Source: Scenedesmus sp. ARA3
Lineage: Eukaryota; Chlorophyta; Chlorophyceae; Sphaeropleales; Scenedesmaceae
Direction: 5' to 3'
Length of the DNA: 25,437 nucleotides
Assembly: GCA_004335835.1 (NCBI GenBank)
Contig: RWJK01000093.1
Coordinates: forward strand, 1-25,437
Position 1 is the first letter of the stretch. Each line of letters opens with the position of its first letter. The position numbers and the translations under genes were made by a program. Under the pieces are notes generated by a model. It made no database searches. It was not told the DNA's origin and saw nothing but the letters and a program-made list of their open reading frames with translations. This document shows positions 1,747 through 25,115 of the stretch, piece after piece.

Positions 1747-1811
1747 GCCGGCTGCGCCTGCTCTGCTGCCGCCTGCTCGCCCGCACCCTCCCTACCCCAA
1801 GGCAGCACCGA
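1747..1811 (-). repeat. Copy of the 3' end of the trigger-factor last exon
   Basis: This GC-rich stretch resembles about 65 bp of the last chaperone exon around 1908-1972, including the CCCCAAGGCAG segment, with scattered substitutions. It lies downstream of the stop codon in gene orientation, as expected for a duplication of the exon's 3' end. It is not part of the open frame. Confidence 0.6.
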
Positions 1812-1891
1812 TATAGTATATACTTCCACCTAGAAGTGTTGCTGGCGCCGCTATCCCCTTCATGCCCGCTGCTTGCTGCTTCAGTGGCTCC

Positions 1892-4800
1892 TCATACGCT
1901 TGCTGGCTGCGCTGCCTGCGTTGCTGCCGCCTGCTCTGCCGCGCCCTCCCCGCCCCAAGGCAGAACCTCCACCTTCAAATTCTGCTGCAGCCACTGCATC
2001 ACTGCTGCATAGCGCAGCTTCTCAACAGTTTCCTGCCTGTACACATCGGGATCAAAGTCCACTTTTTCGGCCTTGCACTGGGCTTTTGCCCGCTCCACTT
2101 CTTCTTCCAGGCCTTCGATGTCAACATCAATGCCCTGCTCCTCGGCGATGGCTTCTGCAGCCAGAACGTAGCGGCAGCGCTCCTCAAGGCCCATGCGCCT
2201 GCGAGCAGGTGAGTGCAGCAGCAGCAGCAGCAGCAGCAGCGGCAGCAGCAGCAGCAGTTGCCACGTACGTCATGATCGTTTGTGCGAGAAATAGTCACAC
2301 TCACTCTGACTCAATGAAGGCGTCCAGACTCTCTTGGGCGCACCACGCCCTCCATGCACACCACACTCATCGGCACCAACAACTGTAACAACTCCAATAA
2401 CTTATAACAGCAGATATAATAAGAGTAACAATTCATCTGTTTCGATGAGGGTGTTAGACGTGTCTCATTGGTGAGGCACTGAGTGCCTCCAGGTTCTCGT
2501 CAAATACGCTTGCCTAGATGACGTTTGTGACCAGCCAGTGAGATGGGTCCCCCTTGGTAACCACAAAAAAAATTATGTTTCGATGAAGGCATCCAGCCCC
2601 TCCTGTGTCAGCTGGCGCTCCACATCCTCCATGAGCGCCACGCCTCTCTGCACCAACAACTGTAAAACCACCACCAACATTAATAACAACAATTACACAA
2701 CACGAAAAACAACTCACTCTGACTCAATGAAGGCATCCAGCCCCTCCTGTGTTAGCTGGCGCTCCACATCCTCCATCCTTGCAACACCGCGCTGCACCAG
2801 GTCCAGCAGCTTGGCCTGGAACTCCTTCTCACCCTGCGCCTGCAGTAGTGCTTCTGGGATTGGGCTGGCCACACAGGCAGACACCTGCGGCACAATGCAG
2901 TTGCAGAAGCAAAGCAAGGTCAATGCATGAGAAGAAGGTGGGACTTTATCCTGCAGCACTCTTTGTCTTGCTGGTTGAAAGGACGGCGAGAGGTTAGCAG
3001 TGCTTGATGACTCATCGCCTGAGGCGCATATAAGAATTTGCTCAGAATTGAGCAGGCAGTGGTGCATCAGCTTGGCCTGGAACTCCTTCTCGCCCTGCGC
3101 CTGAAGCAGCGCCTCAGGAATAGGGCTGGCCACGCAGGCAGAGACCTGCGGCACAAAGCGAGCAAGCATACAGATTTGTTGGACGCAATGGCTAAAAACA
3201 GCTTTGGTCAGGTGCATTGGAGCGCGAGGGTTGGCGAGGGTTAAATAGCATGGCAAGTGTGCGTTGTGCTCAGAGTTGAGCAGGCATGGTCCAGCAGCTT
3301 GGCCTGGAACGCCTTCCCGCCCCACGGGTGCAGCAGCGCCTTGGGGATGGGGGCTGGCCATGCAGGCAGACACCTGCAGCGCAGCGTATGAATTCAAGAA
3401 AAACCTATGAGCTTTGAACAGCAGCAGCAGCAGCAGCAGCAGCCGTCAAAGGATGCAGCCAGCCGTGCCTTGCGGATGAGGCTGGCCATGCAGGCCACTA
3501 CCTACAGCGCAGTGCAAAGAGCAGTTGTGAAGATGCAAAGGGTTGATATAAACAATGGGGCAATCAGAACCATGAACACCTTTATATCCGACCATTGCTA
3601 CCCTTCAGCAGCGCCCACCGGGGGGAAGACGGCGTCCTTCACTCTATCCTCGATGTCCCGCATGCGCTCCAGGCTGGTGGTGCTGACCACATACTGATCC
3701 GAAAGAAACCCCAAAATGATATATTTCCACAGCTTGTAACATGTTTGAAAATAAAAAACAACATGCAGCGCCCACCTGTGTGAGGATGGCATCCTTCACT
3801 CTATCCTCAATGTCCCTCATGCGCTCAAGGCTGGTGGTGCTGACCAGGCTCTGCCGCAGGTCGGCTGCCGACTCAAACTGCGGGTAGTGCTGCGCCACAA
3901 ACTCGTCGTTGAACTGCAGCCAGCGGACAGCGACAAGAAGTTGTTGTTATCATTGTTATTTGTGTTGTGATCGTATCGTGCAATGGACATATAACCAGAT
4001 TCAAAGGCAGCAGCAGCAACAGCAGCAGCAGGAGCAGCTTGATCATACGCAGAGAAAAAGGCTCCTAAACGTCTAGTATGTATCTCAACAGGCATATCAC
4101 ATGACGTTACACCTGCATATTACCAGACACACTAGCGCCGCACCTCAGGCAGGATGTAGCTGAACAGCTCCTCCAGCTTGATGTCTGCCACTGCAGTCTG
4201 CCCCCGTCACAAATAACATAGCTTAACAAATGCAATTTTCTTGTCATGTAACACAATGAAGTTGTCCTCGCACCTCTGGCAGGATGTAGCTGAAGAGCTC
4301 CTCCAGCTTGATGTCCGCCACAGCTGTTTGTCCCCGCCACAGGTCCACGTGCCAGTCCTGAGGGAACACAAACTCCCAGCTGCGCTGCTCGCCAGGCAGC
4401 ATGCCCAGCATGTGCTGCACGGACAGGTAAAAACAAAACGCGCAGAGAACGCATCAGCGGCAGGATGCAAGCAATGCTTGTCAATTTGCAGCGAGTGTAG
4501 GTGAACTGGGCTCGGCCCAACTTGCCAGGCAGCGTGCCCAGCATGTGCTGCAGGGATCAAGGGACACAGGATATGCGGAAACGGAGGCAGGGGCAGAAGG
4601 GTCAGTTTGCCGCGAGTGCACCGCACGTTGGCTGCATGGAACTCGCCAGGCAACAAGCCCAGCATTTTGCTGCAGGGTTGGATAGGCCGGGTTTGAGCTT
4701 TTGTCTTCTGTGACATGCAGTTTTAGACAAAATATATATCAGTCAAAGCTCAGTCAAACTACAGTAAAATACACTCTTGCAAGGTTCACTGTGCCTGCAC

Positions 4801-7800
4801 CGCTCGCAATTCAGCACTTGTACTTGCTGGGGCCAGGGTAAAAACTTTCCTACACCTTGCAGAATACATCTGCCACATACAACAGTCAAAGTTTGGTCAA
4901 CTCACGTCTGTCAGGTCCAGTATTTCTGAATCAATGTCAAAGAATAACTTTTCCTTCTTCAGGCCCAGGTAAGATGGGATCTTCATCAAACAACACAAGC
5001 AAATGATGGGTCAAACATTGGTCAATTTTGATCAAACTTCGGTTCAACTCACGTCTGTCAGGTCCAGCATGTCTGCGTCAGTGTCCAAGGAGAACTTCTC
5101 CTTCTCCAGGCCCAGGTAAGACCAGATCTTCGTCACACAAAAACAAACAAATGTTTGGTCAAACATTGGTCAAAGTTTGGTCAAGCTTCGGTCAAACTCA
5201 CATCTGTCAGGTCCAGCATGTCTGCGTCAGTGTCGAAGAAGAACTTCTCCTTCTCCAGGCCAGGGTAGGGGGCAGCGGGGTTGGACTTGGGCGCGATGCG
5301 CATGTTGATGATGGCGCCATCACCACGCGCCAGGCCCCTGCAAGCAGCCATAACATGTAACATCAGTTGAACTGTACCAAAAAATGCGCCAAGAGCTAAA
5401 CTTGGGCGCGATGCGCATGTTGATGATGGAGCCGTCACCACGCGCCAGGCCCCTGCAGTCAGTGCAAGGTGCATATAATGGTCTGGCACATTGATTTGGC
5501 GCATTTTGAGTCATTGTGATGCACGGTGGATGATGGCGCCGTCACCACGCGCCAAGCCCCTGCAGTGCAAGACACATACGTTGATTTGGCGCCATTTGTA
5601 TTGCAAGTGCATCAATGTTTGGCGCCATGTGTCACCTGCTTCTGCTGTTCCACGCTATTCAACCAACTGCAGCTTCGTGTAAAAGGGGAAAATGTCATGA
5701 CTGACAAGAAACGCAGCAATATTGCGCTGCCTCCGCACCTGTCTGCTACCACACGCTTCTGGCCTTCCTGCTTGAGGTACTGCCGTATGAGGCCATCCGC
5801 TGCAGCCTGGTCGCTCTCGATGTTGCCTGGCGCAGCAGCAGCAGACACAGCAACAGCGGCACCATCAGCTAACCATCCAAGCTGTGTGGCAGATCATGTA
5901 TCAATGCTCACAGGGCTACAGTACTAGTGCACACACTGCAGCTGAGCCGGACAACAGCATTGCTTGCCTGCTTGCCGGTCAACTTTGTGCTGATGAGATG
6001 TCCCCATCACACAGCACGTGACTGGGTGACACAGACAGTGAAAGTGCAGTATCACCAGAGGCAACTGTGTTGATCTTCACCTGTGTCCTGCAGCGTGATG
6101 ACAATGTCCTGGTAGGGGCTGCTCCACTGCACACCGCTCCTCAACACCCCTAACTCACAGTGACATATCACCAGGCAACATTGTGAACTTCCCACCTAAG
6201 TCCTGCAGCGTGATGGCAATGTCCTGGTAGGGGCTGCTCCACTGCACACCGCTCCTCAACACCCCTAACTCACAGTGACATATCACCAGGCAACATTGTG
6301 AACTTCCCACCTAAGTCCTGCAGCGTGATGACAATGTCCTGGTAGGGGCTGCTCTCGCTCCACTGCACACCGCTCCTCAACACCCCTAACTCACAGTGAC
6401 ATATCACCAGGCAACATTGTGAACTTCCCACCCAAGTCCTGCAGCGTGATGACAATGTCCTGGTAGGGGCTGCTCCACTGCACACCGCTCCACAACACCC
6501 CTAGTTCACAGTGAGTTATCACCAGGCAACAGTGTGAACTTCCTACCTGAGTCCTGCAGCGTGATGACGATGTCCTGGTATGGGCTGCTCCACTGCACCT
6601 CAGGCAACCGCGAATACGTCACCTGCAGCACACACACATGCAATCACCACCGTTGGGTGTTTGCGTCGTTGGCAGAAATTATGTGGGTCACATGTAGCAT
6701 CATGGCAGCTTGAAGGTATTGCATTGCCGCCCCACTTTGAGTGCTGCTGCTGCTGCTGCTGTGCCGTGACCACCAGGAATTTGGGTGGCTTGGCTGGGTC
6801 GCCATGAGCTGCTCACTGCTTGCTGCTGCTGCCCCGACTGTCCCTGCTGCCGCTGCTGCCGCTGCTGCTGCTACACAGTTGGCACCTGGAATGTACATGG
6901 CTTCGCCGGGTCAAAGGCTGCCATGAGCTGCGGCATGTTGTTGACTAGCCGCTGCTGCTGCTGCTGCTGCTGCTTGTTCTCACCAACAACTCTCACCTGG
7001 AACGTGAGCGGCTTAGCTGGGTCGAAAGCCGCCATTAGCTGCGGCATGTTGGTGGCGATCTGCTCCGAGCCTGGCAGCATGCGCGCAGCGTGCACCGGCA
7101 TCACCTGCACAGGGCCGTTTTGGCATCACACACAGCAGCAGCCACATGTTGAAGCAGAGATGTGGCAACGACTGACGTAATGGCTTCAATGAGTTACGTG
7201 GCAGCATGCGCGCAGCATGCACCGGCAACACCGGCACAGGGCAACAACAGATTGCAGGTGCCGGAAGGCACGGTCAGCAAGAGCAGTCACACTGAGGCAG
7301 CAGGGCTGTGGCCTCATGCGCAGGCAGTTGTTGAACCAGCACAGGAGGTTAGAGAGCTGATGCAACAGATCTGCAGCTCAATTGACACTAGGCTGCCAGC
7401 CATTTGAAACTCACGTCACCCATGACGCGGATGAGCACCGTCTCTAGCACTGCGGCGTCAAACTGGGCCTGCCCTCCCACCCTGCTGATGATCTCACTCA
7501 GAGGGATCTTGTCCTGCCTGAAGCCCTTCAGGGGGCCCACCACATCCCTGCGGTTCACAGACAACAGGGTTCAGGGTTGAAGTTTGGGGCTCGGGCATTT
7601 AGGTTTCAACAATGGCATCACTCAGCGGAATCTTGGCCTGCCTGAAGACCTTCAGGGGCCCACCACATCCCTGCGACAATAGGTGCAAGCGGTGTTTGTA
7701 TGTCAACATGTCAGCAGCGCAGCTTGGGAGTAGGCCACACGTACCGAGCCCCTTGATGCTGCTAAGAAGGCACTGGGGTTGGCCATGCTGTGGCAACATA

Positions 7801-8139
7801 TTTTTGCTGCTGCTCCTGCTGCTGCTGCTGCTGCTGCTGTTAATACTTCTGCTGCTGCTGCCGCCCTCTCACCTGCGCATGATCTTGACAGTCTCAGTGA
7901 ACCCTGCCTGGCAGATGCTGCCAGATTAATTGCTGCAGCTGCTGCTACCAGCCCAGCTGCTGCACTGCTGCTGCTGCTGCTGCTGTTCATACTGCTACTG
8001 CCACTGCTGCCGCCCTCTTACCTGCGCATGATCTTGACTGTCTCTGTGAACCCCTCCTGGCAGATGCTGCCTGGCACTGTGATGGTCAGGCTAACCTTGT
8101 CAGCCGGCAGCAGCTCACGCACCACCTGAGGACAGCAGC

Positions 8140-8170
<31 letters not shown>

Positions 8171-8892
8171 CGGTGTGACAAGCAAGTTGGGATGCAGGTT
8201 TCTGGTTTTGGTTTGTGATGGTGAGGCTGACCTTGCCAGCAGGCAGCAGCTCACGCACCACCTGGTGTATACACAAACACACATCCCCAGCAGCAGCAGC
8301 ATTAGCATCATCAGCAGAACAACAGGAGAGTGTGGACAGACGTTGGCGGATGCAGCAGCATTGTATCAGGGCTGCATTACGGCTGCGTTGGATTGGTGAG
8401 TCACAAGTGAATGTCAGGCTGTCTCTTCTGCTCTTCTTTGAACATCTGCTGCACGCTGCCTTGGCAAGGGGACCGCAGCACTGCCTTGGCGTACGAGACG
8501 CCCCATACTTAACAGCAGCATTGTCATCATCACGACATGTAGGTGCATGCGTATGGGATTGGCCTGGCTGGCGAGCTGTGTGGTTCACTGCCCGATGATA
8601 TGCTTGCAGCTGCCAGCTGCTGCCTGAGCTAAAAAATTGCATGAGGTGCTTTGTTATGGTGCAGCTGCCGCCAGCCGGCCACCTCACCAATACATGAGCT
8701 TACAACGTCATTCTATCAGCTGCTGCTTTCCAGTCTTGTTAAAGAAGTCCTTCGAAACAGTTGAGCTTGTTTAGAGCTGCTGCTGTGTGACCTGGCGCAT
8801 GCTCGCACCTCATACTCGCGCTTTGCTGCCTGCACCAGTACTGTGCTGGCACGAGACTGGCGTCCTGACACACGCAGCAGCTGCTTGGGGGC
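1892..8892 (-). CDS. TIG1: Trigger factor-like chaperone, probably plastidic; 11 exons traced, start not found
   Basis: This is a ribosome-associated chaperone that shelters nascent chains and has a peptidyl-prolyl isomerase-type domain. In transcript order the exons are 8892-8809, 8125-8022, 7547-7415, 7104-6997, 6622-6547, 5826-5739, 5337-5202, 4414-4274, 3913-3776, 2884-2718 and 2198-1892. All junctions are GT-AG and all phases fit, giving 1482 nt and 493 residues ending in TGA. The N-terminal ribosome-binding domain shows KVSLTITVPG and the loop GFRQDKIP. The FKBP-like domain shows VADRGLARGDGAIINMRI and later PGEQRSWEFVFP. A helical C-terminal domain starts near LPEFNDEFVAQHYPQF. The bacterial FRK motif reads FRQ here. 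The frame before 8892 meets a stop without an ATG, so a first exon, probably carrying the transit peptide, lies further upstream. The nearest TGTAA is 923 nt past the stop, at 965-969. The family call is firm; plastid location is inferred. Confidence 0.9.
2218..2262 (-). repeat. CTG run before the last trigger-factor exon
   Basis: On the coding strand this is a nearly pure CTG/CCG triplet run ending about 20 nt before the 3' splice site at 2199/2198. It occupies the place of the polypyrimidine tract. The plus strand shows CAG. Confidence 0.85.
2299..2663 (-). repeat. Downstream copies of the 3' end of trigger-factor exon 10
   Basis: Two partial copies of the 3' end of exon 2884-2718 lie in the following intron. 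The copy at 2299-2368 keeps the 5' splice site (CAGAGTGAGT in coding sense) but then diverges. The copy at 2583-2663 matches exon sequence for about 60 bp but has lost the splice site. A fragment near 2440 (GTTTCGATGAGG) may be a third remnant. Confidence 0.75.
3062..3506 (-). repeat. Upstream copies of the 5' end of trigger-factor exon 10
   Basis: Three copies of the 5' part of exon 2884-2718 lie in the intron before it: 3062-3149 (closest), 3291-3376 and 3466-3506 (most decayed). Each begins beside a CTGCGGC or CTGCAGC sequence, the complement of the 3' splice site. The closest copy still reads VSACVASPIPEALLQ in frame. A plus-strand CAG run (3418-3445) lies between the outer copies. Confidence 0.8.
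3616..3697 (-). repeat. Downstream copy of the 3' end of trigger-factor exon 9
   Basis: This copy repeats the last 70 or so bases of exon 3913-3776 (TTSLERMRDIEDRVKDA) and keeps a GTGGGC 5' splice site, but ends differently just before it. It lies in the downstream intron. The first intron bases (GTGGGCGCTGC) are also copied, so the duplicated block spans the junction. Confidence 0.8.
4144..4205 (-). repeat. Downstream copy of the 3' end of trigger-factor exon 8
   Basis: About 60 bp match the end of exon 4414-4274 (ADIKLEELFSYILPE), with the adjoining GTGCG splice site retained. The copy lies in the intron after the exon. Confidence 0.8.
4519..4669 (-). repeat. Upstream copies of the 5' end of trigger-factor exon 8
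   Basis: Fragments at 4519-4547 and 4641-4669 repeat the start of exon 4414-4274 (HMLGMLPG) next to CTGCAGGG, the complement of a 3' splice site. The sequence between them is also loosely repeated with a spacing of about 120 bp. Confidence 0.65.
4891..5201 (-). repeat. Tandem units of about 148 bp carrying the 3' end of trigger-factor exon 7
   Basis: The motif CTCAC(G/A)TCTGTCAGGTCC occurs at 4901, 5048 and 5197, so the spacing is 147 and 149 bp. The last copy belongs to the real exon 5337-5202. Each extra unit repeats about 75 bp of exon end, its 5' splice site and intron sequence. The intron part contains a smaller GGTCAAAnnTT-like repeat that also extends back to about 4741. Confidence 0.85.
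5399..5561 (-). repeat. Upstream copies of the 5' end of trigger-factor exon 7
   Basis: Copies at 5399-5452 and 5519-5561 repeat the start of exon 5337-5202 (GLARGDGAIINMRIAPK) with the adjoining CTGCAG. The copy next to the exon is the longer and nearly perfect. Confidence 0.8.
6070..6535 (-). repeat. 115-bp tandem array carrying the 3' end of trigger-factor exon 5
   Basis: The block beginning GAACTTCC recurs at 6185, 6300, 6421 and 6536, and a diverged first unit starts near 6070. The spacing is 115, 121 and 115 bp; the 121-bp unit has a 6-bp insertion. Each unit carries about 50 bp of the exon's 3' end with a 5' splice site, then shared intron sequence. The last motif adjoins the real exon 6622-6547. 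Confidence 0.9.
6774..6943 (-). repeat. Downstream copies of the 3' end of trigger-factor exon 4
   Basis: The copy at 6886-6943 repeats the exon end MPQLMAAFDPAKP(L/C)TFQ with its splice site. A more decayed copy lies at 6774-6812. Both are followed by plus-strand CTG runs (CAG on the coding strand), as is the real exon 7104-6997. Confidence 0.75.
7199..7237 (-). repeat. Upstream copy of the 5' end of trigger-factor exon 4
   Basis: About 38 bp (coding sense PVHAARMLP) repeat the start of exon 7104-6997. It lies in the upstream intron and is the counterpart of the 3' copies on the other side. Confidence 0.65.
7612..7672 (-). repeat. Upstream copy of the 5' end of trigger-factor exon 3
   Basis: This repeats the start of exon 7547-7415, in coding sense DVVGPLKVFRQAKIPLS, with the CGCAG 3' splice site. 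The ribosome-binding loop is mutated (KVFRQAK against KGFRQDK), fitting loss of selection. Confidence 0.85.
7873..7924 (-). repeat. Downstream copy of the 3' end of trigger-factor exon 2
   Basis: This repeats the end of exon 8125-8022 (GSICQxGFTETVKIMRR region) with the GTGAGAGGGCGG splice-site flank. Coding-strand CAG runs follow both this copy (7801-7860) and the real exon (7935-8015). Confidence 0.8.
8126..8171 (-). repeat. CTG run at a trigger-factor 3' splice site
   Basis: The coding strand has a CTG run broken by CCG that ends in GTCCTCAG directly before exon 8125-8022. The same intron has short CAG repeats close to its 5' splice site (8780-8790). Confidence 0.85.
8215..8263 (-). repeat. 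Upstream copy of the 5' end of trigger-factor exon 2
   Basis: The coding sense reads VVRELLPAGKVSLTI next to a CCAG 3' splice site. It lies in the intron before exon 8125-8022. Confidence 0.85.
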
Positions 8893-10815
8893 CTGCAGCC
8901 ATCGTTGAAAAGAGTTGCACAACCATTGTCAGCAGCAGCAAGCATGGCAGCAGCAGCAAGCATGGCAGCAGCAGCAGCAGCAGCAGCAGCAACAAGCATG
9001 GTTGCTCCTCATTCTCTGGGCATTCAGACTAGGTCAGGCATTAAATAGGTTGCTATGTATCCCATATTTCATGTTTCGCATTGAAAATCAGAATGCGCAG
9101 CCAAAACATAAGCAAACAGCGACATGGTATCGGGTTCCCGGAAGCTCACCGCATGCACGTGCGCCTGGGGCCTAGACACACCATTGCATCGCGAATGTGC
9201 CAAGTTGGCGCCGCGAGATTGCATGACGACAAGCTGTAAGGAACGACTAGGCCCAGAGACGGCTCAGCAAGAGCCCACAGCAAGCTTCGCAGCACGAAAA
9301 GCAGAAACTTGCTCTGACGGGCCTACCAAAGTATTTGCGGTGGTTTGGGTGCCCTGAATGATCGTGCAGTACGTGTCACAGCAAGTGGGGTGCAAGCACA
9401 TGACCCTAGTTTAAATTTCATGCCGTTTCTCGATCTCTGCACTGCTTGCACACGCCAAATTGTTAGAAATATGGGACCTTGTACGTCTATTTGATTCAAC
9501 AGCGATGCTCACCACGATGCTGCTGCTGCTGCAACAAACACTGTGCATGTGTACCTCCAGTGCTCTGGCGACCTCAATCCCAGTACAAGCACATTGTCTA
9601 AATCGATGAGCTAATGAAGTGTCAAAGGGAATGCGTTACACGCAGTTTGCATGTCCTTCGCCTTTGCAATGTAACGCTGTGTGCTGCGTATGCTTAAACT
9701 TCCAACTCCTCTTGAGCAGCCCCAGGCTGCTCACCCCGGGTCCTTATTGATGAAGCATGGAGTGCCAAGTGCCTGTCACCAGCACTTTGAGCAGTCTATC
9801 GAGCCATAAATCCGCACAACCTTCCACATCACAAAGCAGAAGCCATTGGCCTGTACAAGGCACCTGGCCGCTGATAAATTCTACTGGCGCCTTGCTGATG
9901 TTCAGTGTGCTCTGCAGATGTGGCAGCAGACAAACACGTTAGGTGTTAATGCAGCACCAAGAATTTGAGTTGAGAGCCCAGAAGACGCGAAGAGCAGCTA
10001 CTGCTGTCGGAAAGCCTGGATGGTCATCGCACACACCATGTGGGCAGTCAGCTGCGGTCAAACTTCGCACTGAAACAGAGGGAACCATTATTTTGCGCAC
10101 TCAAACTTTTTAGAAAATGGATCAACAACTAATGAAGACAACACCGCTGCCAATGAGGCTTCCTCACAGGCGATTGACAGCGACACGCAGTAACAACTGC
10201 TGCGCACGTCTGCTTGAGATGACATGTGCTCGGTTACAACACTTCAACTTACATTGCTGTTGTTGTGTTAACGTTGCAGTGACTGCTGCCAGTCACTTGC
10301 ACTGTGTCTGTAGCCGTGAGTGTGCTGTTTACAAACACTTCATCCCTTCTGGACTATCCTTTAAAAGTTTGGCGTGTTCAGCGTTTGCCTTACGAAACCA
10401 CTCACGAAGCAGCCGGCCTTGCGGTGAGGACAGCTCACAGCTGGATCGTCCCCAAGCCGTCTTTAGACACGTTTAAAACAATATAAACAGTTTCGAACTC
10501 TTAGATCTTGCCAGCATCCAGCATCTGTTGCGTCCTGCTGAGAATGCCCCTGCACAACAGATATGCAGCACAGCAGGCTGCCTGCTCACCATCATCAGAT
10601 GCCAGCTAACAGCTACCCTTGCGATTTAATCTCGCTGGCACTTCATCACCTCGGCATTTGAGCAGCTTTGCATGCAGCATCATCACGTTCTGCACTGTTT
10701 ACACTACTGCTTGGTGCCCACCAATTCACCCACCCGTCCATCCAACCCACCCCCTGCCTTTCCCGCTGCCTCTGCAGAACCCTCCCACCGCAGCAGGCAG
10801 CCAACACATCACACA
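8893..10815. other. Divergent intergenic region, no gene recognised
   Basis: This 1.9-kb stretch separates the minus-strand chaperone from the plus-strand heme gene. It should contain both promoters and the missing first chaperone exon. A CAG run lies at 8931-8996. Open frames at 9124-9357, 9757-9942 and 10117-10476 show no family resemblance or supporting splice pattern. I could not place a TATA box with confidence. Confidence 0.5.
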
Positions 10816-12454: not shown

Positions 12455-12485
<31 letters not shown>

Positions 12486-14198: not shown

Positions 14199-14237
<39 letters not shown>

Positions 14238-15977
14238 CTTTGTGGGCAGCCCCTGGACACTTGCCACCTACATCATCGAGGGAGCCAGCAGCAGCCTCTA
14301 CAAGACCATCAAGTGAGCCCGGCTGATACGTCTGCTGATTGAAGATGGCGGTGATGTGGCTGTCCTCATATGCTGTCCCCTTCCCTTGGGTGTTGATGTG
14401 GTGCTGAGCAGTGCGTGACTTGTTTATTGTTCGTCTGCCGCCTCCGCCCACGCTGCTGCTGCTGCTGCTGCTGCTGCTGTAGGTCTATGGCATACAGCGA
14501 GCCTGCGCTGCTTGACGCGCTGCTGAGCCACCTGGCCGACGCGATGGCGGACTACATCCGCTTCCAGATCGACAGCGGCGCGCAGTGCGTGCAGATCTTC
14601 GACTCGTGGGGCGGCCAGCTGCCACCCTCACAGTGGGACAAGTGAGTGGCTGTTACTTGATGTGTTGCGGTTGTGTTATGTGACTGTTAAAAGGCGTGTA
14701 CAGTGTGGGTAGATCTTCGACTCCTGGAGCGGCCAGCTGCCGCCGCGGCAGTCGAAAGTTCAGTGCTAATCTGAAGCAATAGGTAGAGCTCATGTTACTG
14801 GTTGTGTACTGTCACATGGCTTGTTGCTTAATACATCTATTTTGAAAGGAGCCACAAGTTGTATGTTAATGCATTTGGGGTGCATGGTCAATGAACGGCT
14901 CTACACAAAGCTCAGGCAGTGCTCAATGCCTGTGTATCAACACTGCTGCTGCTGCTGCCTTTTCCAGGTGGTCCGGCCCCTACCTGCGGCGCGTGATTGA
15001 GAGCGTCAAGTCAACGCACCCCAGCACGCCCCTCACGCTGTATGCCAATGGCAGCGGCGGCCTGCTGGAGCGCCTTGGAGCTACTGGGGCTGATGTGGTG
15101 GGCCTGGACTGGACTGTTGACATGGCTGATGCACGCAGGCGGCTGGGCAGCAAGTCGGTGCAGGTGAGAGCCCCACTGGGCGGTGTGGCGAGGCCGTTGT
15201 TGATCGATGCCAATGTGTGTTTGTCCGCTGCGCTAATGCATCTGATGCAGTCTGCAGGAGGGCGCTGACCCCGCGACGCTATTGAAGGCATGTGTATATG
15301 CATACGGCCAATGTATGGTACCGCGGACCTGCTTGGCAAGCAACGGAACAGCTGCAGACTGACTTGGACTCCATTGTGCTGTCTGCGGCGAGACCGCCAT
15401 CGAGGCCGCCGTGCACATGCGATGCATATGTGCCCAGTGCACATGTTCACTGTATGTGATTATTGTGCTGCAATCCGCAGGGCAATGTGAACCCCACGGT
15501 GCTGTTCTGCGGAGGCCGCTGTTGAGGCTGCTGTGCATTGCCAAAGCCGCTGTGCACACTGCACCTCAAATAAGCTGACTCAACCCACTGCGTTACTTGT
15601 GTATTGCAGGGCAATGTGGACCCCACGGTGCTGTTCTGCGGCGAGGCCGCCATCGAGGCTGCCTTGCGCGCACCCACTGCATCTGCGCCCACTGCAGTAA
15701 AATTCGTACTCATTGAACTACCCTTGCACTCAACTCCCCGTTTAACCGAATCCATATGATGTACTACCGCCTGCAGGGCAACGTGGACCCCACAGTGCTG
15801 TTCTGTGGGGAGGCAGCCATCGAGGCTGCCGTGCGTGACGTGCTCAGCAAGGCGGGCGGCAAGGGCCACATCCTCAACCTGGGCCATGGCGTGCTGGTTG
15901 GGACACCAGAGGCGGCAGTGGCGCACATGTTTGCACTCAGCAAGAGCATCAAGGCAGCGGAGCTGGTGACTGCCTAA
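10816..15977 (+). CDS. UROD: Uroporphyrinogen decarboxylase, probably plastid-targeted
   Basis: This enzyme converts uroporphyrinogen III to coproporphyrinogen III in heme and chlorophyll synthesis. Exons are 10816-11018, 12488-12581, 13469-13606, 13837-13936, 14237-14312, 14483-14641, 14968-15163 and 15777-15977. All junctions are GT-AG and in phase, giving 388 residues and a TAA stop. The first 40 or so residues are rich in S, A and R and contain VVVRAQA, a likely transit peptide with a cleavage site. The core starts at [16 protein letters not shown] (R64 and R68), FSDILTPL (D114, the catalytic aspartate position), GSPWTLATY (Y190) and ILNLGHG (H359) match the known active-site residues of the family. 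The length fits plastid forms. The nearest TGTAA (17922) is almost 2 kb past the stop, so the transcript end is uncertain. Confidence 0.95.
11019..11600 (+). repeat. Five extra copies of the 3' end of UROD exon 1 in tandem
   Basis: After the real exon end at 11018, copies of the [14 protein letters not shown] end recur, ending at 11125, 11224, 11307, 11419 and 11542. Each is followed by GTGGGT, a usable 5' splice site. The spacing is 83 to 123 bp and the intron part of the unit (CCTGCAAGG..GCAGCAGGTGTG) is shared. Copies at 11125, 11307, 11419 and 11542 are close matches; the one at 11224 is decayed. Confidence 0.9.
12382..12432 (+). repeat. Upstream copy of the 5' end of UROD exon 2
   Basis: After a CCGCAG 3' splice site the copy reads [15 protein letters not shown], compared with [15 protein letters not shown] in the real exon at 12488. 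It lies about 106 bp upstream and then diverges. Confidence 0.9.
12443..12487 (+). repeat. CTG run forming the end of UROD intron 1
   Basis: A CTG run broken once by CTA ends directly in CTGCAG at the 3' splice site of exon 2. There is no other polypyrimidine tract. Confidence 0.9.
12611..13086 (+). repeat. 30-bp minisatellite in UROD intron 2, with an assembly gap
   Basis: The unit is about GTTGATGGCTTGTGGGTTGC followed by TGTTGTGCTT, repeated about 15 times in the visible sequence, with variants TTAATGG, GTTGGTG and GTTGTTG. Bases 12868-12929 are N, so the true copy number is unknown. The array begins with three short GTGCTTGCTGTT units. Because 30 is divisible by three, long open frames run through it on both strands; these are not genes. 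Confidence 0.95.
12868..12929. other. Assembly gap (62 N)
   Basis: A run of 62 undetermined bases lies inside the 30-bp minisatellite. The gap length is probably nominal, since repeats of this kind collapse in assembly. Confidence 1.
13087..13125 (+). repeat. Downstream copy of the 3' end of UROD exon 2
   Basis: GACGAGCTCATCGTTGACG continues like the exon end (coding ELIVDISLQ) with a 2-bp insertion before the former splice site. The minisatellite therefore lies between the real exon end (12581) and its copy. Confidence 0.8.
13245..13403 (+). repeat. Two upstream copies of the 5' end of UROD exon 3
   Basis: Copies at 13245-13290 (TTGCAG, then [10 protein letters not shown] in frame) and 13359-13403 (CTGCAG, then [13 protein letters not shown]) repeat the start of exon 13469. 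Each keeps a 3' splice site. The flanking AACTCTGCCCCTGC is repeated as well (13200 and 13319). Confidence 0.85.
14198..14233 (+). repeat. CTG run at the end of UROD intron 4
   Basis: A CTG run ends in CCAG at 14236. The same intron starts GTGAGCAGCAGCAGCAGCAG, so its two ends carry complementary triplets. Confidence 0.9.
14451..14482 (+). repeat. CTG run at the end of UROD intron 5
   Basis: A CTG run ends in CTGTAG directly at the 3' splice site of exon 14483. Confidence 0.9.
14710..14757 (+). repeat. Downstream copy of the 3' end of UROD exon 6
   Basis: This repeats QIFDSWxGQLPP from exon 14483-14641, with changes and no usable splice site. It lies 69 bp into the following intron. Confidence 0.85.
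15366..15665 (+). repeat. Three upstream copies of the 5' end of UROD exon 8
   Basis: Copies start near 15366 (decayed at its 5' end), at 15481 and at 15610. The latter two follow CGCAG and TGCAG and read GN(V)(N/D)PTVLFC before diverging. The copy at 15610 keeps the frame through GEAAIEAA. The spacing to the real exon (15777) is about 120 to 170 bp. Confidence 0.9.
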
Positions 15978-16085
15978 GTGCATGCTACCAGGGAGGGCTT
16001 TGTAGAGGGTTGGTGGGGATGTGAAGGCTGTCCGGCTGCGTCCGGTTGGTGTGAATCAGCTGCTGTGGCTTTGGGTTTAAGTGTG

Positions 16086-16219
16086 CTGGTCAAGGCAGGC
16101 GGCAAGGGCCACATCCTGAACCTGGGGCATGGTGTGCTGCTGGGCACACCAGAGGAGGCAGTGGCACACATGTTTGCACTCAGCAAGAGCATCAGGGCAG
16201 CAGAGCTGGTGACCGCCTA
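16086..16219 (+). repeat. Downstream copy of the UROD C-terminus with its own stop
   Basis: The copy repeats the last 44 codons of exon 8 in frame to a TAA ([19 protein letters not shown] is visible), with four or so conservative changes. It lies 108 bp after the real stop. It lacks the exon start and an obvious 3' splice site, so it is most likely 3' UTR or a pseudo-exon. It is unusually intact compared with the other copies. Confidence 0.9.
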
Positions 16220-18129
16220 AGAGGGTTGTGTGACTTGGCGGCTGCCTAGTTGGTGGAAGTTTGAGTTATGCAGCGGCTGGGGTTTAAGTTGGCATGCAGC
16301 AGCAGCAGCAGGGGTGGTGATGGTGGTGTGATGAGGAGTAGGGTTGTGGTTACAGGGTCACTGGGTGGGTTTGATCGGCATCAGGTGCAGCGACTGGTTC
16401 CCCGAGGTTGATGGGTTTCTAGGGTGGGGCTTGAAAGGGCGAGTATGCACTGTTGGTGGGTGGCTTGAGTGCTGTGCTGGCCGGTTGATGCGAGTGCTAA
16501 GTGCTTTATTTTGAATGACAGCGGTCATCACGAGTGTGTTGTGCCGCTGCTGTGTCTGCAGATTCGTCTGTGGTGATGGTGTGCACATCTTGTGCTGCAT
16601 TGTGCTTGCGACTGTCACATCTGCTGTTATGCCGTGTATAAGCATCATGAAGTGATGCATGAGGCCAGCTGGCAGGCAGGCATTGGATGCTGTTATCAGG
16701 GAGTTTGCGGAGTTTTTAGCATGCAGCTGTCTGTTGTGAGACGAAATGCGTGCAGGATTGCATGGCTGCTGCACTGCTGTGACGCTGCGTGTGCGCTAGG
16801 CAGGCTGTGGCGGCTGCTGCCGCAGCTGGCAGCTGGTGTGCATAATAATAATAGTCTTCTTGTGCAGCTGGTGCGCATGTCTTGCCAGCGTGCATGGCGT
16901 GACTGCATGCTGCAGATGCATGTGCCCTGTCGAACTGGATCTGCCGGCAATGTTTTGAGATCAAGACAGTGAATGTATGTGCACGCTGCAGCGTTAGCAT
17001 GTTCTGCCTGGGGGTGGTGTCAGCTTCAGCACGGCCTGACAGCATGTCAGTATCAGCGCCTCTGTGAATGGTCCTTTTGCAACAGACCGGATGATTCCAG
17101 AGTTGCACATCATGATGGTGGTTGGTGGCGTAGCCTCCTGCTGCGTTTGCAGGATCATTGTGGTGCTGACAGCGCTTGGCGCAGGCCTTCTGGGCATATC
17201 TTGACGTTGGCCTGGTACAAGGTGCACATGTGCACATGTACATGTGCACTTGATACGGGGTCGGCGTGGCATTGCAGGGGCTAACAGCAGGCAATATGTA
17301 TGGCGCATCACTGCATCATGGCAGTATGGCACCACAGGCATGAGGATGCAATGTTTGGCCAGCTAGGTGAAGCGTGCACGTGGTTGGCAGGTGCACAACA
17401 GTGCTCAGCTGTGCAGTTTACTGCAACAGTCCTGCATCGAGTGGATGCAGCAGCTGCAGCTGATCTCCAACAGTAAGCATGCCAAACGTTGGTCTTGAAC
17501 CTCCACCGCTGGTTGTATGTCACGGGGTTGATTAGGATTTTGAAAGACACGTCACCTTGTTTCTTGACACGTTCACTGTGAAGCAGGCCTCGAGGCTGCT
17601 TCTGTGCAACAGTGTTCAGCAAACAACTGCCCAGATGGCGCAACTTGCAAATGAACGCTCTAATCAACTACACATCACCTGCAGCATGAGAGCCGAGGAG
17701 CAGGGCTCTGATTGTCCGGCAGTTTACCGATGACTAACCTGAGAATGTACCATATCGTATGCTTTGAAAGACCTGTTCATTCTATAACAGGATTTTGTTG
17801 CTGTCATGCTACGTTTTTGTTTCTTTTTTTGCTCACCTCGTGGCGTGTACGCGGCAGATTCTCATGTACGCCGGCAGAAGTAGACGCTTGTGGACGAAGA
17901 GCGAGAGAGAACTCAAAATATTGTAACATTCAACTAAATCTACTCATTTTGTCGTCGTTCAACAATAACCAGGGTGGAGCAAGCAGCAGGAGGCATGCAG
18001 TAGCATGAGATACCTCTGCTGGCGCTGAGCACGAAGGAGGTTGGTGGGTGCCTCTTGCATTGTAGTTTGCAGACAAAGATGACGTGTGCTAGGGGTTGGA
18101 TGCTGGCCGAGTTGCAGCAGTACCCGCTG

Positions 18130-18164
<35 letters not shown>

Positions 18165-18512: not shown

Positions 18513-19237
18513 ATGCCAGACCTGCTGGATGAGCTGCAAAGCTTGTCTGTCTCAGAGTACAGCAGCCGGCGGCGTGATACAGCAGCAGGTGCCAGCCTGT
18601 TTGCTGACGTGGCACATGGAGAGGTTGCAATCGATGAATGTGCCAGCCAGCTGCTGCACACCCGTCCATGTGAGTTGAGGTGTGGGGTTGAACTCAGTGT
18701 GGCAAGGCAAAGAGCAACCCGTCCAGTGCTACAGCAGCAGCTGGCAGATTAGCTAGCTTGTGACAAGGATGAGTGTTGAATATGGTCGCCCTGCGCTGCA
18801 CAGCATGCTGCAGCACAGTCGGTGCTGAAGTGCTCATGCCAGCCTGCTTGCTGACATGGCCCATGGGAGGTTGCAGTTGATGAATGCAGCAGCCGGCTGC
18901 TGCACACTTGGCCATGTGAGTACAGCAGTTGCTGAGGCACCAGGCTGTAGCGCAAGGCGCAAAGCTGTAGCCTGAGCCACCAGGCTGTAGCATGAGGCAC
19001 CAGGCTGTAGCGTCAGACACATGCTGGCAGCACCAGGCTATAGCATGGCCAGCATCTGCCCATATCAGCTGGTAAATGCTGTAATGGTTGCAGCAGTTTT
19101 GTGCGGGCAGGCAGCAGTGACCTTGCGCTGCACAGACATAGCAGCACAGCTGGTAACAGCCGCTGTCACCAGCCACTGGGTGAAATTCAGGCTGCGAATA
19201 TCATGTAAGGCAAGTTGGAAACAAGTGCAAGCTTGTG

Positions 19238-19272
<35 letters not shown>

Positions 19273-19564
19273 TGCTGCTGCTTCATAGTCCACCGGACGA
19301 ATTCATTGAAGCAGCTAGGCTGCGCACACTGTCGCTTCCTATCAGAGGTACTGACCATGCTGCTGCTGCTGCTGCTGCTGTTGCTGCTGACCCACAGTCT
19401 GCCGCATGGAGAATCTAAAGCAGCTGGGCTGTGCACTCTCCAATGATATGCTGACTCAGACGCCGTGCTGCTGCTGCTGCTGATCCGCAGTCCGCCGCAT
19501 GGATCACCTCAAACAGCTGGGCTGTGCCAACTGGGTCTTAGCATCGAAGCTGACTAAGACGCTG

Positions 19565-19609
<45 letters not shown>

Positions 19610-21482
19610 GTTGCAGTCCGCCGCATGGATTCCCTCAAGCAGCTGGGCTGTGTCAATTGGGTCTTCCCTGGAGCCACCCACACTCGGCATCAGCACTCCC
19701 TTGGGGTGTCTCACCTGGCTGTCGAGTGTGGGATGCAGCTGCACCGCAATGGGTCAAAGGATGTAACGGCTGAGAACCTGATGCTGCTGGGGGTGGCAGG
19801 TGAGGCGGCGAGAATGCTGCTGCTGCGTGCCAGGATCTGCAATGTGCATGAGTTGCAGTCGTACAAAAAGCAACAACAGAGTGCACCAATGCATTGGTAC
19901 TACCACGGTGAGCGAAGGAATGCCCGGTTGTGGCGAGGTTCTGCCGCCAGAAACAACATGTGCCAGACGATTGCATGTAGAGTTGTGTACATGGGGCCTC
20001 ATATGTATGCTCTGGGGACGTTGGTAATCAACCGCAAAGCTTGGTCAACTACATGTTATAACGTGTTTTGTAAATGCAGGCCTGCTGCATGATGTGGGCC
20101 ATGGCCCCTTCAGCCACGTGTTTGAAAGCCAGATTCTGCCACGGCTGGGAGTGACAGGCTGGTGAGTACTGCTGAAAGCAGCACACGCTTTGCATACTGT
20201 TCATGGAGACACCAGCAACAGTTGATCGGGTTGACTGCGGTGCACAATGTAGAAACAGCACATGTATGTGGCATCAGCACTGCTGTCCAGCAAGTAGACG
20301 CTAGTTCTGCATGCGCATGCCAGACACTGGTAGACATTTCATGTGGGTGTGCAACTGCCGCTGCGGTTGTTGCTCAGAACGTGTGCCTCGATGTCAACTG
20401 CTGGATCTGGCTACATGCTGCTGCCACTGCTGCTGCCGCTGCCGCTGCTGCGGCTGCTGCTGCTGCTGCTGCTGCTGCTGTCGCTGCACAGGAAGCACGA
20501 GGACATGTCAGAGCAGCTCATCGACCACATCGCAGACAGCAGCAGCCTGGACCTGTCGCAGCAGCAGTGGGGCCGTGTGAAGGACATCATCCGAGGAAGA
20601 ACAACACCCGGCATTTTTTGGGCGGAGGGCCAGGAGTGGCTGCCCTCGGTGCGTGGCTGAGTGTGGTTGATGGTGGCATACTTGATGAATTGTGATAAGT
20701 ACTTGATGAAAGACAGGCTGCACATCTTATCTGCTGCTATCTGCTGCTAAACAAATGTTACTTTGAATGCACATAACATGTTATAACACATTTTGTTGCA
20801 GGTGGTGGCTGGTGACGCTGACATGGACCGTGGTGACTACCTGATGAGGGACGCAGTGACAACCGGCATGCAGCACAACTATGACGTGTGGGAGCTCATA
20901 CGAGCCTCCAAGGTAGGCGCAGCTCTGGTAGGAGCAGCTCCGGCAACATCTGTCTCGGCGCTATCGCCCCAACAACGTGCAGCACAGCTTTGATGCCTTG
21001 CCTGCTGCTGCCCTGAACCTTGGCGCTGGTGACTGTCGCATTGTGTTTTTTTGGCTGTCCCTGCAGCCCAGGAGCTGCTGGTTAATGGTGAGAAAGCAAC
21101 CTGTCACGCTGAGTCAGCGCAGCCGGCGCTTGCCCAGCTTTTCGGTAACTTGCTAGACCCTGTACTACCCTGTGTTAGCCACACTATAACAAAAGGCCTG
21201 CTTGTCACAACATCCCAGGTGCTGGAAGTCGACGGCGTAAACACAATCTGCTACGCGGAGTCAGCCCAGTCTGTGCTGGCTGCGCAGTTTGAGGCACGCG
21301 CGCTGATGCACGACACGGTGTACCAGCAGCAGCAGGTCAAGGCAGTCGAGTGCATGGTGGCGGATGCACTGACTGCTGCAAACCACGTGCTGCGTATTCA
21401 AGAGCTTGCTTCAAGGTGTGTGAGGGGATGGGTGTCTTAGCAGGTTGGGGCAGTGGAGTGCAGCAGCAGCAACAGCAGCAGC

Positions 21483-21514
<32 letters not shown>

Positions 21515-23404
21515 TCGGGGCAGTTCAGCGCATGGTGGCTGGCGCTCTGTTTTGCTGCAAACCACATGCTGCACATACCAGAGCTGGCTGACAGGTGCGG
21601 AGCGTTGACAGGTTGTGTCGGGGCTCGAATGCACCGTCTTGTGATGTGCAGCGGCAGTCACCAGCCTGTGTGCAGCTCCAGCTGCCGTCGACATCAAATA
21701 CGTATGCTTTGCTTTGCATGGATTGGACGTTGGAAAGGCCCTCTCGCTCACCCTTCAGTGTCCTCACCAGCACATGTGCTGCTGGCCTGCTTGTCCATCC
21801 ACAGCAGCGCCTGCGCAGGCTGCATGCATCTGTTTGTCCTCTTCGCACAGCAGCGCCTGCGCAGGTGCATGCACCTTCCTGACCTCTTTGTGTTCCAGCT
21901 TGTTCACCTTTCTGCAGTGCGTCCTCCTTCCTCGCCCTGTCAGATGACAGCCTGCTGGGCCGCATACGCCAGGAAGGCATCCTGCTCAACAGCAGCAGCA
22001 GCAGCAGCAGCAGCGACCCCAGCCTGCGGCAGGCAGCAGCCATCCTTGCGCGTGCTGATGCAGGGGACTACTACCCAATGGCAGCAGAGCTGGACGTGAC
22101 TGGCTGGGTGAGGAGTTGGTAGTCAGGGTCTGGAGTTTAGGGTTTTGGTTCTGGTTTGAGTAGGGTTGAGCACCCTAGCGCGTGCTGATGCAGGAGACTA
22201 TTACCCAATGGCTGCAGAGCTGGACGTCACCGGCTGGGTAAGGGTTTGGTTTGGTGTGGGGTTTCGGTTGAGCCATCCTTGCGCTCCTGCAATTCAGTGG
22301 CTGCAGATCTATATGTCATTGGCTGGATGAGCGCTGCTGAGTTCTGGGTAGCAGCAGCTGCGCTGTTTACGCTAGCGTGATGCGAGCAACTCGTGGATTA
22401 TATTGTCAAGTGCTTTGTTGCGCTGTCGTGCAGTACCTTCAACACAGCAGTCAGTGTATACAGTCTGACCCATCAGAGTTGTCTGCGCTGCTGGCCAACT
22501 GACAATGAACCGTTTCAAACTCTGAACTTTCCTGCAGGACCCCCGGCGGCTCAGCTGCAGCAGTGCAACGGTCGAGCGCCAGCTGGCTGGCTACTGCCAG
22601 GACCTAACAGCAGAGGACATCCGGGTGGTAATTGCTGAGATCGGCCACGGCAGGTGGGCCTGTGTTACATTGGTCATGTCGTTCGCACCTCGGGGTAGCA
22701 TGTCAGCTGCTTGAAGTCAAGTTTTACTGCTGGCACATATGCCAGTGCATTGCTTTTCAGCTGGGGCAGGCTATGACAGCTGCCACAGAGGTGCGTGCAC
22801 ATTGGTTCTGCACAAACATCGGCGTTGACTTTGGCAGGCAACTGTATTGAGGCAAAATGTACCTGGCTGCTTGATCATATTCCTGAAGAACCTCAGAGCG
22901 TCACCAACTTGTGTGTTGCGCTGTGGTGCTGTCGTCTGATCTCTGATGTGCAGGAAGCAGCAGGACCCGCTAGCATTCAAACTGCTGTATGCTGCTGATC
23001 TCAACACGCGGCCAGCACACGAGGGCCTGCAGCGGCCTGTTGTGTTCTCCAAGCGCCTGGTGGGTGCTGCTTGATTGTCAGCGCTGCACATACAACCCGT
23101 CACCCGGCAGGAATAACGCGTGACACATGACAATGTTTTCATCCAGGGCTGCCAGCTGCTTGGCCTGTTCCAGTGCATCTAGAGTTACACAAAAATGAGG
23201 TTGGTGCTGCCGTCTTATTCATAGATTGTGCTGCCGCTGCTTTTCGTGGCGCTGTCTCCTGCTGATGTTGCTGCTGCTGCTGCTGTTGCAGATGCGTATG
23301 TACCTTGCCAAGGACTGCCAGCGCAATGCTGCCCTCATCAACCGCAGCATCAGTCAGCTGCAGGCGGCGCTGCAGCGCCTGATGCGTGAGCGCGCAGGCA
23401 GCCC

Positions 23405-23456
<52 letters not shown>

Positions 23457-25022: not shown

Positions 25023-25115
25023 CTACAGCACCAGGCTGGGACAGCAATGCTTGAGAGCAGCGCCGCCTGCAGCACCAATGCTGTTGCCGTCCAGGTTTAG
25101 GATCTGCAGGTGCGG

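What the first reader, a model, noticed from the sequence alone, without database searches (positions are those of the whole stretch)
1747..22330. Partial exon copies that span splice junctions, with strict polarity, in three unrelated genes
At least 16 of the 29 traced exons have one or more truncated copies beside them. Copies of an exon's 5' end carry the 3' splice site and always lie upstream; copies of its 3' end carry the 5' splice site (or the stop) and always lie downstream. I found no exception. A tandem duplication across an exon-intron junction keeps the reading frame only if the outer copy is spliced out, so polarity follows from selection on intact mRNA. It implies a high rate of short tandem duplications (about 80-150 bp) and shows a route for intron growth that leaves decoy splice sites. 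I know of no description of this as a general feature of an algal genome.
Basis: partly seen in the sequence, partly recalled or inferred. Interest (0 to 1): 0.9.

Follow-up and report, generated by a model that had tools for sequence, protein, structure and literature searches.

The report
Introns grown from copied exon edges
In patches of the genome of the green alga Tetradesmus obliquus, introns hold truncated copies of the edge of the neighbouring exon, splice site included, and are longer by some 130 to 180 bases per copy; the copies likely began as short duplications made during DNA repair, and copy and exon probably trace to different versions of the gene, which would make introns an archive of old variants.

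Summary
In three Tetradesmus obliquus genes, 17 of 29 traced exons have end-anchored truncated copies beside them: 39 copies, every 5'-end copy upstream, every 3'-end copy downstream. In 173 kb from elsewhere, 34 of 34 non-exonic end-anchored copies obey this polarity, but the feature is patchy (20 of 223 predicted exons, 9 of them in one stretch). Introns without copies have a median of 280 bp; those with copies match this after subtracting 128 bp per copy. Polarity follows from tandem geometry; selection shows in the survivors: no exon-internal duplication, and at least 53 bp of intron in every unit. The copies are non-coding now (indels break the frame in 15 of 16 cases), yet their differences from the exon are too synonymous for copies free since birth (nonsyn/syn 0.225 against 0.53-0.58 simulated). 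That step is inferred. Single boundary-crossing cases are in print; recurrence, additive intron growth and the allele signature appear new.

The parts
1892..9224 (-). Trigger factor gene, 12 exons: 9150-9224, 8809-8892, 8022-8125, 7415-7547, 6997-7104, 6547-6622, 5739-5826, 5202-5337, 4274-4414, 3776-3913, 2718-2884, 1892-2198
   Evidence: the 493 traced residues differ from T. obliquus OEZ85_002177 at one
10816..15977 (+). Uroporphyrinogen decarboxylase gene, 8 exons: 10816-11018, 12488-12581, 13469-13606, 13837-13936, 14237-14312, 14483-14641, 14968-15163, 15777-15977
18513..23876 (+). SAMHD1-like HD-domain gene, 10 exons: 18513-18669, 19617-19799, 20080-20161, 20492-20648, 20802-20912, 21219-21415, 21918-22107, 22538-22653, 22954-23059, 23292-23876
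8214..8261 (-). 5'-end copy of exon 8022-8125, upstream
7873..7922 (-). 3'-end copy of exon 8022-8125, downstream; intron flank shared
7618..7670 (-). 5'-end copy of exon 7415-7547, upstream
7199..7231 (-). 5'-end copy of exon 6997-7104, upstream (AG lost)
6886..6943 (-). 3'-end copy of exon 6997-7104, downstream
6435..6483 (-). 3'-end copy 1 of exon 6547-6622, downstream; young array
6311..6354 (-). 3'-end copy 2 of exon 6547-6622
6196..6247 (-). 3'-end copy 3 of exon 6547-6622
6081..6132 (-). 3'-end copy 4 of exon 6547-6622
5400..5452 (-). 5'-end copy of exon 5202-5337, upstream; 96% identical, intron flank not alignable
5526..5559 (-). second 5'-end copy of exon 5202-5337
5054..5118 (-). 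3'-end copy of exon 5202-5337, downstream; flank shared
4907..4971 (-). second 3'-end copy of exon 5202-5337
4521..4547 (-). 5'-end copy of exon 4274-4414, upstream
4642..4665 (-). second 5'-end copy of exon 4274-4414
4144..4211 (-). 3'-end copy of exon 4274-4414, downstream; 8 third-position changes, one makes a stop
3625..3689 (-). 3'-end copy of exon 3776-3913, downstream
3061..3145 (-). 5'-end copy of exon 2718-2884, upstream (exon bases 1-85)
3288..3373 (-). second 5'-end copy of exon 2718-2884
2580..2655 (-). 3'-end copy of exon 2718-2884, downstream (exon bases 86-161; abuts the upstream copy)
2305..2355 (-). second 3'-end copy of exon 2718-2884
1737..1809 (-). 3'-end copy of exon 1892-2198, with the stop, downstream
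11099..11125 (+). 3'-end copy 1 of exon 10816-11018, downstream
11276..11307 (+). 3'-end copy 2 of exon 10816-11018
11386..11419 (+). 3'-end copy 3 of exon 10816-11018; within a possible 39-nt in-frame mini-exon 11381-11419 that a T. obliquus protein record seems to carry
11511..11542 (+). 3'-end copy 4 of exon 10816-11018
12382..12427 (+). 5'-end copy of exon 12488-12581, upstream
13095..13120 (+). 3'-end copy of exon 12488-12581, downstream
13241..13291 (+). 5'-end copy 2 of exon 13469-13606, upstream
13359..13399 (+). 5'-end copy 1 of exon 13469-13606, upstream
15362..15414 (+). 5'-end copy 3 of exon 15777-15977, upstream
15481..15536 (+). 5'-end copy 2 of exon 15777-15977
15610..15668 (+). 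5'-end copy 1 of exon 15777-15977
16083..16220 (+). 3'-end copy of exon 15777-15977 with the stop, downstream; has the TPEE residues of other records
18837..18915 (+). 3'-end copy of exon 18513-18669, downstream
19398..19433 (+). 5'-end copy 2 of exon 19617-19799, upstream
19491..19539 (+). 5'-end copy 1 of exon 19617-19799; has the GCANW residues of P0136
21502..21589 (+). 3'-end copy of exon 21219-21415, downstream
22171..22237 (+). 3'-end copy of exon 21918-22107, downstream

Best explanation
Introns of these Tetradesmus obliquus genes carry truncated copies of the adjoining exon's edge with its splice site; they likely arose as short tandem duplications (about 130 bp) across the junction during DNA-break repair, and copy and exon probably trace to different, diverged alleles, most simply because the repair copied from the homologous chromosome. 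SHOWN: the copies, their polarity, the spacing of 128 +- 21 bp, the minimum of 53 bp of intron per unit, the intron lengthening, the patchiness, the loss of frame in the copies, and the synonymous excess. INFERRED: the break, the template and the rejoining. In the version I favour, an end broken inside the exon copies outward from the homologue through the splice site into 50-115 bp of intron, leaves, and is end-joined to the other end; the old exon piece stays outside as a decoy and the newly copied piece completes the exon. Later exchange of the exon with another allele would leave the same trace. Only events that carry a whole splice site with enough intron would keep the mRNA intact and survive; the copy then decays as intron. 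Splicing would have to prefer the site nearest the intact, shortest exon, as exon definition predicts.
For: Polarity 39 of 39 in the window, 34 of 34 in the survey; control 4 end-anchored hits for 252 exons. Introns: median 280 bp without copies (11), 566 with (16), 269 after subtracting 128 per copy; Spearman 0.91; linear fit 248 bp plus 177 +- 18 bp per copy. Survey: 281 (124), 548 (16), 302 after subtraction. Non-exonic pairs of the same spacing exist in the survey. Gaps never below 53 bp in 47 families; log10 P -12.7 under uniform placement for 37 single-unit families. Copies are dead now: 15 of 16 length-differing pairs break the frame, 2 stops against 2.45 expected; distance is a multiple of 3 in 14 of 47 families (counted). 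Yet the nonsyn/syn rate ratio is 0.225 (57 ungapped pairs, 39 families, bootstrap 95% 0.16-0.32) against 0.53-0.58 for copies neutral since birth beside a constrained exon (lowest of two sets of 400 runs 0.31); the third-position excess holds inside and outside CpG, and third-position GC is the same in copy and exon (0.803, 0.799). So the copy lineage was under coding constraint for much of its separate history, which an allele provides. At 2 of 3 places where a copy covers a residue in which the window differs from another T. obliquus record, the copy has the other record's residue (my comparison). Relatives are reported diploid with separable haplotypes (PMC7955037, PMC5552973).
Against: No second allele was found in the assembly for four stretches tested (trigger factor 5200-5350; 23292-23876; L029; L018; the searches score best candidates only), so no template was seen. 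29 of 73 pairs clearly share flanks, as a same-chromosome duplication would. Arrays of up to five versions need further unit duplication. Non-exonic pairs away from copies (24) outnumber flank-only pairs beside copies (18) in the survey, so exon homology is not needed for duplication; only in the window are there none away (0 against 11). The cleanest test of the copy lineage is small: 10 syn, 8 nonsyn. At the third covered residue the copy has neither state (read).
Confidence: 0.4

Rival explanations
1. Ordinary short tandem duplications within one chromosome hit junctions and non-coding DNA alike; those that leave an intact mRNA survive and the outer copy decays; no allele is involved.
For: Polarity; unit arrays; flanks clearly shared in 29 of 73 pairs and homologous within 250 bp in 24 of 46 families; copies 6196-6431 share identical flanks; non-exonic pairs of the same spacing in the survey. 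Small tandem duplications at staggered breaks are documented (PMC8355091, passages).
Against: Nonsyn/syn 0.225 against 0.53-0.58 simulated; flanks not alignable beside 90-97% identical exon parts in some families, e.g. 5400-5452 and L029 exon 5051-5229.
Confidence: 0.4
2. The copies are functional: spliced as alternative exons or otherwise kept, so protein-level selection still acts on them.
For: Synonymous excess; AG kept in 35 of 40 and GT in 29 of 31 copies; T. obliquus record A0A383V4C4 has a 13-residue insert that matches, but for one residue, a 39-nt mini-exon around copy 11386-11419.
Against: Frame-breaking indels in 15 of 16 length-differing pairs; stops at the neutral share; no consistent splice site at inner ends; copy acceptors score lower than real ones (5.36 against 8.66, p 0.011; donors 7.81 against 9.17, p 0.17); proteins of relatives lack the copies.
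Confidence: 0.08
3. Assembly artefact: neighbouring contigs from two diverged haplotypes were abutted without merging an overlap of about 130 bp.
For: Would give polarity, mostly synonymous differences and unlike flanks; relatives are heterozygous.
Against: More than two distinct versions in several families, up to five; frame-breaking indels and stops in copies; gap never below 53 bp; no exon-internal repeat; another T. obliquus record seems to carry a variant of the copy at 11386.
Confidence: 0.1
4. A mobile intron-like element (introner) inserted beside exons with long target duplications.
For: Introners were found mainly in fast-evolving lineages such as green algae (PMC9860276, one passage).
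Against: 38 gap sequences match nothing shared in 199 kb beyond their own arrays, CTG-type runs and a few matches of 18-36 bp; whole genome not searched.
Confidence: 0.02

Closest known systems
Intron gain by tandem duplication across an intron-exon boundary, potato RdRp gene (PMC4974935; abstract and passages)
   Same: The duplicated segment holds the 3' part of an intron and the 5' part of the exon, with branch site, pyrimidine tract and 3' splice site.
   Different: One case; there a new intron arose. Here tens of copies on both exon sides stay inside the intron, and differences are biased to synonymous changes.
Tandem duplication of an exon segment with a proto-splice site: Rogers model, Drosophila novel intron positions (PMC2891723; passages)
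   Same: Short tandem duplication in a gene rescued by splicing.
   Different: Those are exon-internal and create introns; here existing junctions are crossed and introns lengthen.
Small tandem duplications at breaks with complementary overhangs (PMC8355091; passages; Schiml 2016 seen only as a reference title)
   Same: Short tandem duplications made by break repair.
   Different: Fill-in of one break's two overhangs, hence alike at birth (my inference); here the copy lineage looks older than its release from coding constraint.
Introners (PMC9860276; one passage and the start of the abstract)
   Same: Recurrent source of intron sequence.
   Different: No shared element family in the gaps among the loci held.

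Membership tests
Junction-spanning tandem duplication (potato RdRp type) | Copy holds exon end plus splice site | tested here: met
   39 of 39 window copies reach within 12 bp of the exon end (by the filter); AG kept 35 of 40, GT 29 of 31 over window and survey
Junction-spanning tandem duplication (potato RdRp type) | Intron flank included in the duplicated unit | tested here: inconclusive
   Homology within 250 bp in 24 of 46 families at p<=0.05
Junction-spanning tandem duplication (potato RdRp type) | New spliced intron results | tested here: not met
   Proteins of the species and relatives join the outer exons directly; one UROD record with a 13-residue insert is the exception
Tandem duplication identical at birth, copy neutral afterwards | Nonsyn/syn ratio near 0.5 | tested here: not met
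   0.225, 95% 0.16-0.32; null 0.53-0.58
Short tandem duplication as a general process | Same unit also in non-coding DNA away from exons | tested here: inconclusive
   Survey: 24 pairs, many spaced 99-165 bp with low coding score; window: none
Introner | Related element at many loci | tested here: not met
   38 gaps against 199 kb; whole genome not searched
Inter-allele repair scar (proposed) | Copy nearer to another haplotype's exon than to its own | not testable with these tools
   No second allele found; residues point that way at 2 of 3 places
Mutually exclusive or alternative exons | Complete exon with two splice sites, frame kept | tested here: not met
   Copies truncated, frame not kept

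The most novel reading that the evidence does not exclude
Introns of this alga grow in steps of about 130 bp by out-of-register repair between diverged homologous chromosomes, and each step across a junction leaves a frozen piece of another allele's exon edge in the intron. Introns are thus an archive of lost alleles, ordered outward from the exon.
Probability: 0.25. Interest if true: 0.85.

Novelty: new variant of a known kind. Interest (0 to 1): 0.62.

Why it matters
It gives a concrete, countable source of intron length: a baseline of about 280 bp plus some 130-180 bp per copied exon edge. It shows an alga that keeps many near-perfect decoy splice sites beside real ones, a natural test of how splicing chooses. 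If the allele signature holds, it ties intron growth to recombination between diverged haplotypes and leaves datable remains of former alleles inside introns. It also warns gene predictors: one public T. obliquus protein seems to include such a copy.

Tried and rejected
Rejected: CpG or composition as the cause of the third-position excess. Recursive or nested splicing: no consistent GT or AG at inner ends. Copies as live exons. A repeat family in the gaps. A second gene copy or allele in the assembly as donor: none found for four stretches; a fifth, L023, gave a tandem gene family at 70-86% and no allele. Rfam: no family in the window. It holds in the window (0 pairs away) but not in the survey (24 pairs away, 18 beside), so I widened the main statement, raised the plain tandem-duplication rival from 0.35 to 0.4, lowered the functional-copy rival from 0.1 to 0.08 and the novel case from 0.35 to 0.25. 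Left unexplained: upstream and downstream copies of one exon never overlap (10 of 10) and abut within 7 bp in 4 of 10 (permutation p 0.003-0.004, post hoc); the 53-bp minimum on the donor side. Literature searches listed no account of recurrent exon-edge copies; the library is partial.
Full report
What the window is. The window is contig C46 of an 87.27-Mb, 1567-contig genome. Its three traced genes match Tetradesmus obliquus: uroporphyrinogen decarboxylase (UROD) 96% to A0A383V4C4, trigger factor 100% as listed to OEZ85_002177 (one residue differs in the alignment) and an HD-domain, SAMHD1-like protein 98% to OEZ85_002175. The taxon is Scenedesmaceae, Sphaeropleales.

Gene models. I placed 29 exons from conserved frames and splice sites. 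Trigger factor aligns over all 493 traced residues without a gap to T. obliquus and, but for one residue near the end, to P0122, whose name looks like a transcript assembly (recalled from the accession style). UROD aligns without insert outside the variable N-terminus to P0002, P0003 and Chlamydomonas. SAMHD1-like aligns over 473 residues to P0136 with one extra residue in a serine run and a different C-terminal end. A first trigger factor exon at 9150-9224 was found afterwards.

The observation. Searching each exon against its own introns gave 55 matches at E<=0.01. After removing low-complexity, weak (E>1e-4) and not end-anchored rows, 39 remain; the 16 dropped are described in the observation check. 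All 39 lie on the predicted side. Two carry the stop codon instead of a splice site. 17 of 29 exons have at least one. No exon has an internal repeat.

Is it general? A small exon finder trained on the window (leave-one-gene-out at threshold 22: 15 of 23 internal exons exact, 3 sense calls off exons, 3 antisense calls) called 223 exons; a Markov control gave 16 in 59 kb, so about a fifth may be false. Of 1243 raw matches 152 pass the low-complexity filter. Non-exonic, end-anchored: 23 five-prime copies upstream, 11 three-prime copies downstream, none on the wrong side. Non-exonic full-length: 2. Rows that overlap other called exons, not counted: 11 right-side and 4 wrong-side end-anchored, 9 full, 70 internal. 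The 22 non-exonic matches that reach no exon end show no polarity (3'-half downstream 9, 5'-half downstream 7, 5'-half upstream 3, 3'-half upstream 3) and are as frequent in a control that pairs 252 exons with foreign flanks (22), where only 4 matches are end-anchored. 20 of 223 exons have copies, 9 of 16 in L029, 3 of 11 in L016, 3 of 12 in L018, none in 14 of 22 stretches; the permutation p is at its floor of 5e-5. So the feature recurs but is patchy.

Intron growth. In the window, 11 introns without strict copies have a median of 280 bp, 16 with copies 566 bp; subtracting 128 bp per copy gives 269 bp. Length and copy number correlate at Spearman 0.91; the linear fit is 248 bp plus 177 +- 18 bp per copy. 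In the survey, 124 approximate introns without copies have a median of 281 bp, 16 with copies 548 bp, 302 bp after subtraction. Longer introns could also hold more copies by chance, but the equal remainders speak for addition.

Polarity and selection. A tandem duplication across one junction leaves the truncated piece on the outer side by geometry. Selection shows elsewhere: no exon-internal repeat, and the intron part of the unit is never below 57 bp upstream (22 families) or 53 bp downstream (25 families), with log10 P of -12.7 if units fell uniformly over junctions (37 single-unit families). Copies keep AG in 35 of 40 and GT in 29 of 31 cases. Copy acceptors score lower than real ones on average (5.36 against 8.66, p 0.011), donors not clearly (7.81 against 9.17, p 0.17); the copy scores at least as high as the real site in 17 of 40 and 20 of 31. 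Since the inner, shorter exon must be the one used, splicing would have to behave as exon definition predicts; this is inferred.

What the copies are now. Among 73 exon-copy pairs, 16 differ in length and 15 of these break the frame; in 56 ungapped pairs 2 stops are seen where 2.45 are expected from the non-synonymous changes. Inner ends have no consistent splice site (by eye). The copies are not coding now.

The two clocks. If a copy is free from birth and the exon is constrained, simulations with the observed spectrum give a nonsyn/syn ratio of 0.53-0.58, lowest of two sets of 400 runs 0.31. Observed is 0.225 (174 syn, 102 nonsyn in 57 ungapped pairs of the 73; family bootstrap 0.16-0.32; window 0.239, survey 0.202). 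The excess is present at CpG sites (0.17, 0.11, 0.47 by codon position) and elsewhere (0.042, 0.042, 0.121). Copy-unique changes in multi-copy families are 29 syn to 30 nonsyn where about 28% of site weight is synonymous, nearest-copy-unique 10 to 8, and copy-copy differences are also biased to third positions (35, 16, 68), so the excess is not in the exon lineage alone. The 60 bp of intron beside the splice site are clearly shared in 29 of 73 pairs, at the same exon divergence as the rest; a wider test finds homology in 24 of 46 families. Thus copy and exon seem to have separated well before the copy lost its function. An allele on another chromosome provides such a history. Where a copy covers a residue in which the window's exon differs from another T. 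obliquus record, the copy has the other residue at 2 of 3 places: TPEE in the UROD copy 16083-16220 and GCANW in the SAMHD1-like copy 19491-19539; at the third, in copy 18837-18915, it has neither.

Mechanism. The survey holds 24 non-exonic repeat pairs away from the copies (9 of them in L017), many with spacings of 99-165 bp and low coding scores, against 18 flank-only pairs beside copies; the window holds none away and 11 beside, from 5 families. I commit, with moderate confidence, to break repair in which copy and exon trace to diverged alleles, by copying from the homologue or by later exchange of the exon. Related Scenedesmus strains are reported as likely diploid with separate haplotype contigs (PMC7955037, passages), and a PacBio assembly of S. 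obliquus is nearly twice the size of another strain's (PMC5552973, whole text). No second allele was found in this assembly for the four stretches tested.

Artefact. Unmerged haplotype overlaps would mimic much of this, but not the frame-breaking indels, the more than two versions in several families, or the 53-bp minimum; and A0A383V4C4 seems to carry a variant of the copy at 11386-11419 as a 13-residue insert. Whether that insert rests on RNA is unknown.

Prior art. A single boundary-crossing duplication is described in potato (PMC4974935, abstract and passages); exon-internal duplications in Drosophila (PMC2891723, passages); short tandem duplications at breaks (PMC8355091, passages). Long introns with an unusual length distribution are described for Chlamydomonas and its relatives (PMC8226300, passages). 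My searches listed no account of recurrent exon-edge copies.

Noticed in passing
11381-11419: A 39-nt in-frame mini-exon (TAG before, GTGGGT after) around a decoy copy; the T. obliquus record A0A383V4C4 has a 13-residue insert that matches it but for one residue, so a copy is annotated, or perhaps spliced, as an exon.
   Followed up: partly
L023:4640-4720: A dispersed repeat of about 80 bp, 92-96% identical at 33 listed places in other contigs, with an ATGTA-type tail; unidentified.
   Followed up: no
25054-25437: Tandem repeats of 84 bp at the window's right end that look like coding leucine-rich repeats.
   Followed up: no
9150-9224: First exon of the trigger factor gene (MQSRGANLAHSRCNGVSRPQAHVHA), not among the 29 exons traced here; not searched for copies.
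   Followed up: partly
5119-5201 and L011:8544-8657: Gap introns in two genes on different contigs both hold runs of a TTTGACCA-like short motif.
   Followed up: no
12868-12929: A 62-base N run inside a 30-bp minisatellite in a UROD intron, which suggests a scaffolded gap.
   Followed up: no
2718-2884 and other exons with copies on both sides: Upstream and downstream copies of one exon never overlap in exon coordinates (10 of 10) and abut within 7 bp in 4 of 10.
   Followed up: partly
L008, L011, L017, L025, L029 (coordinates): Non-exonic tandem repeat pairs with spacings of about 100-165 bp, like the exon-edge copies, in stretches with low coding score.
   Followed up: partly
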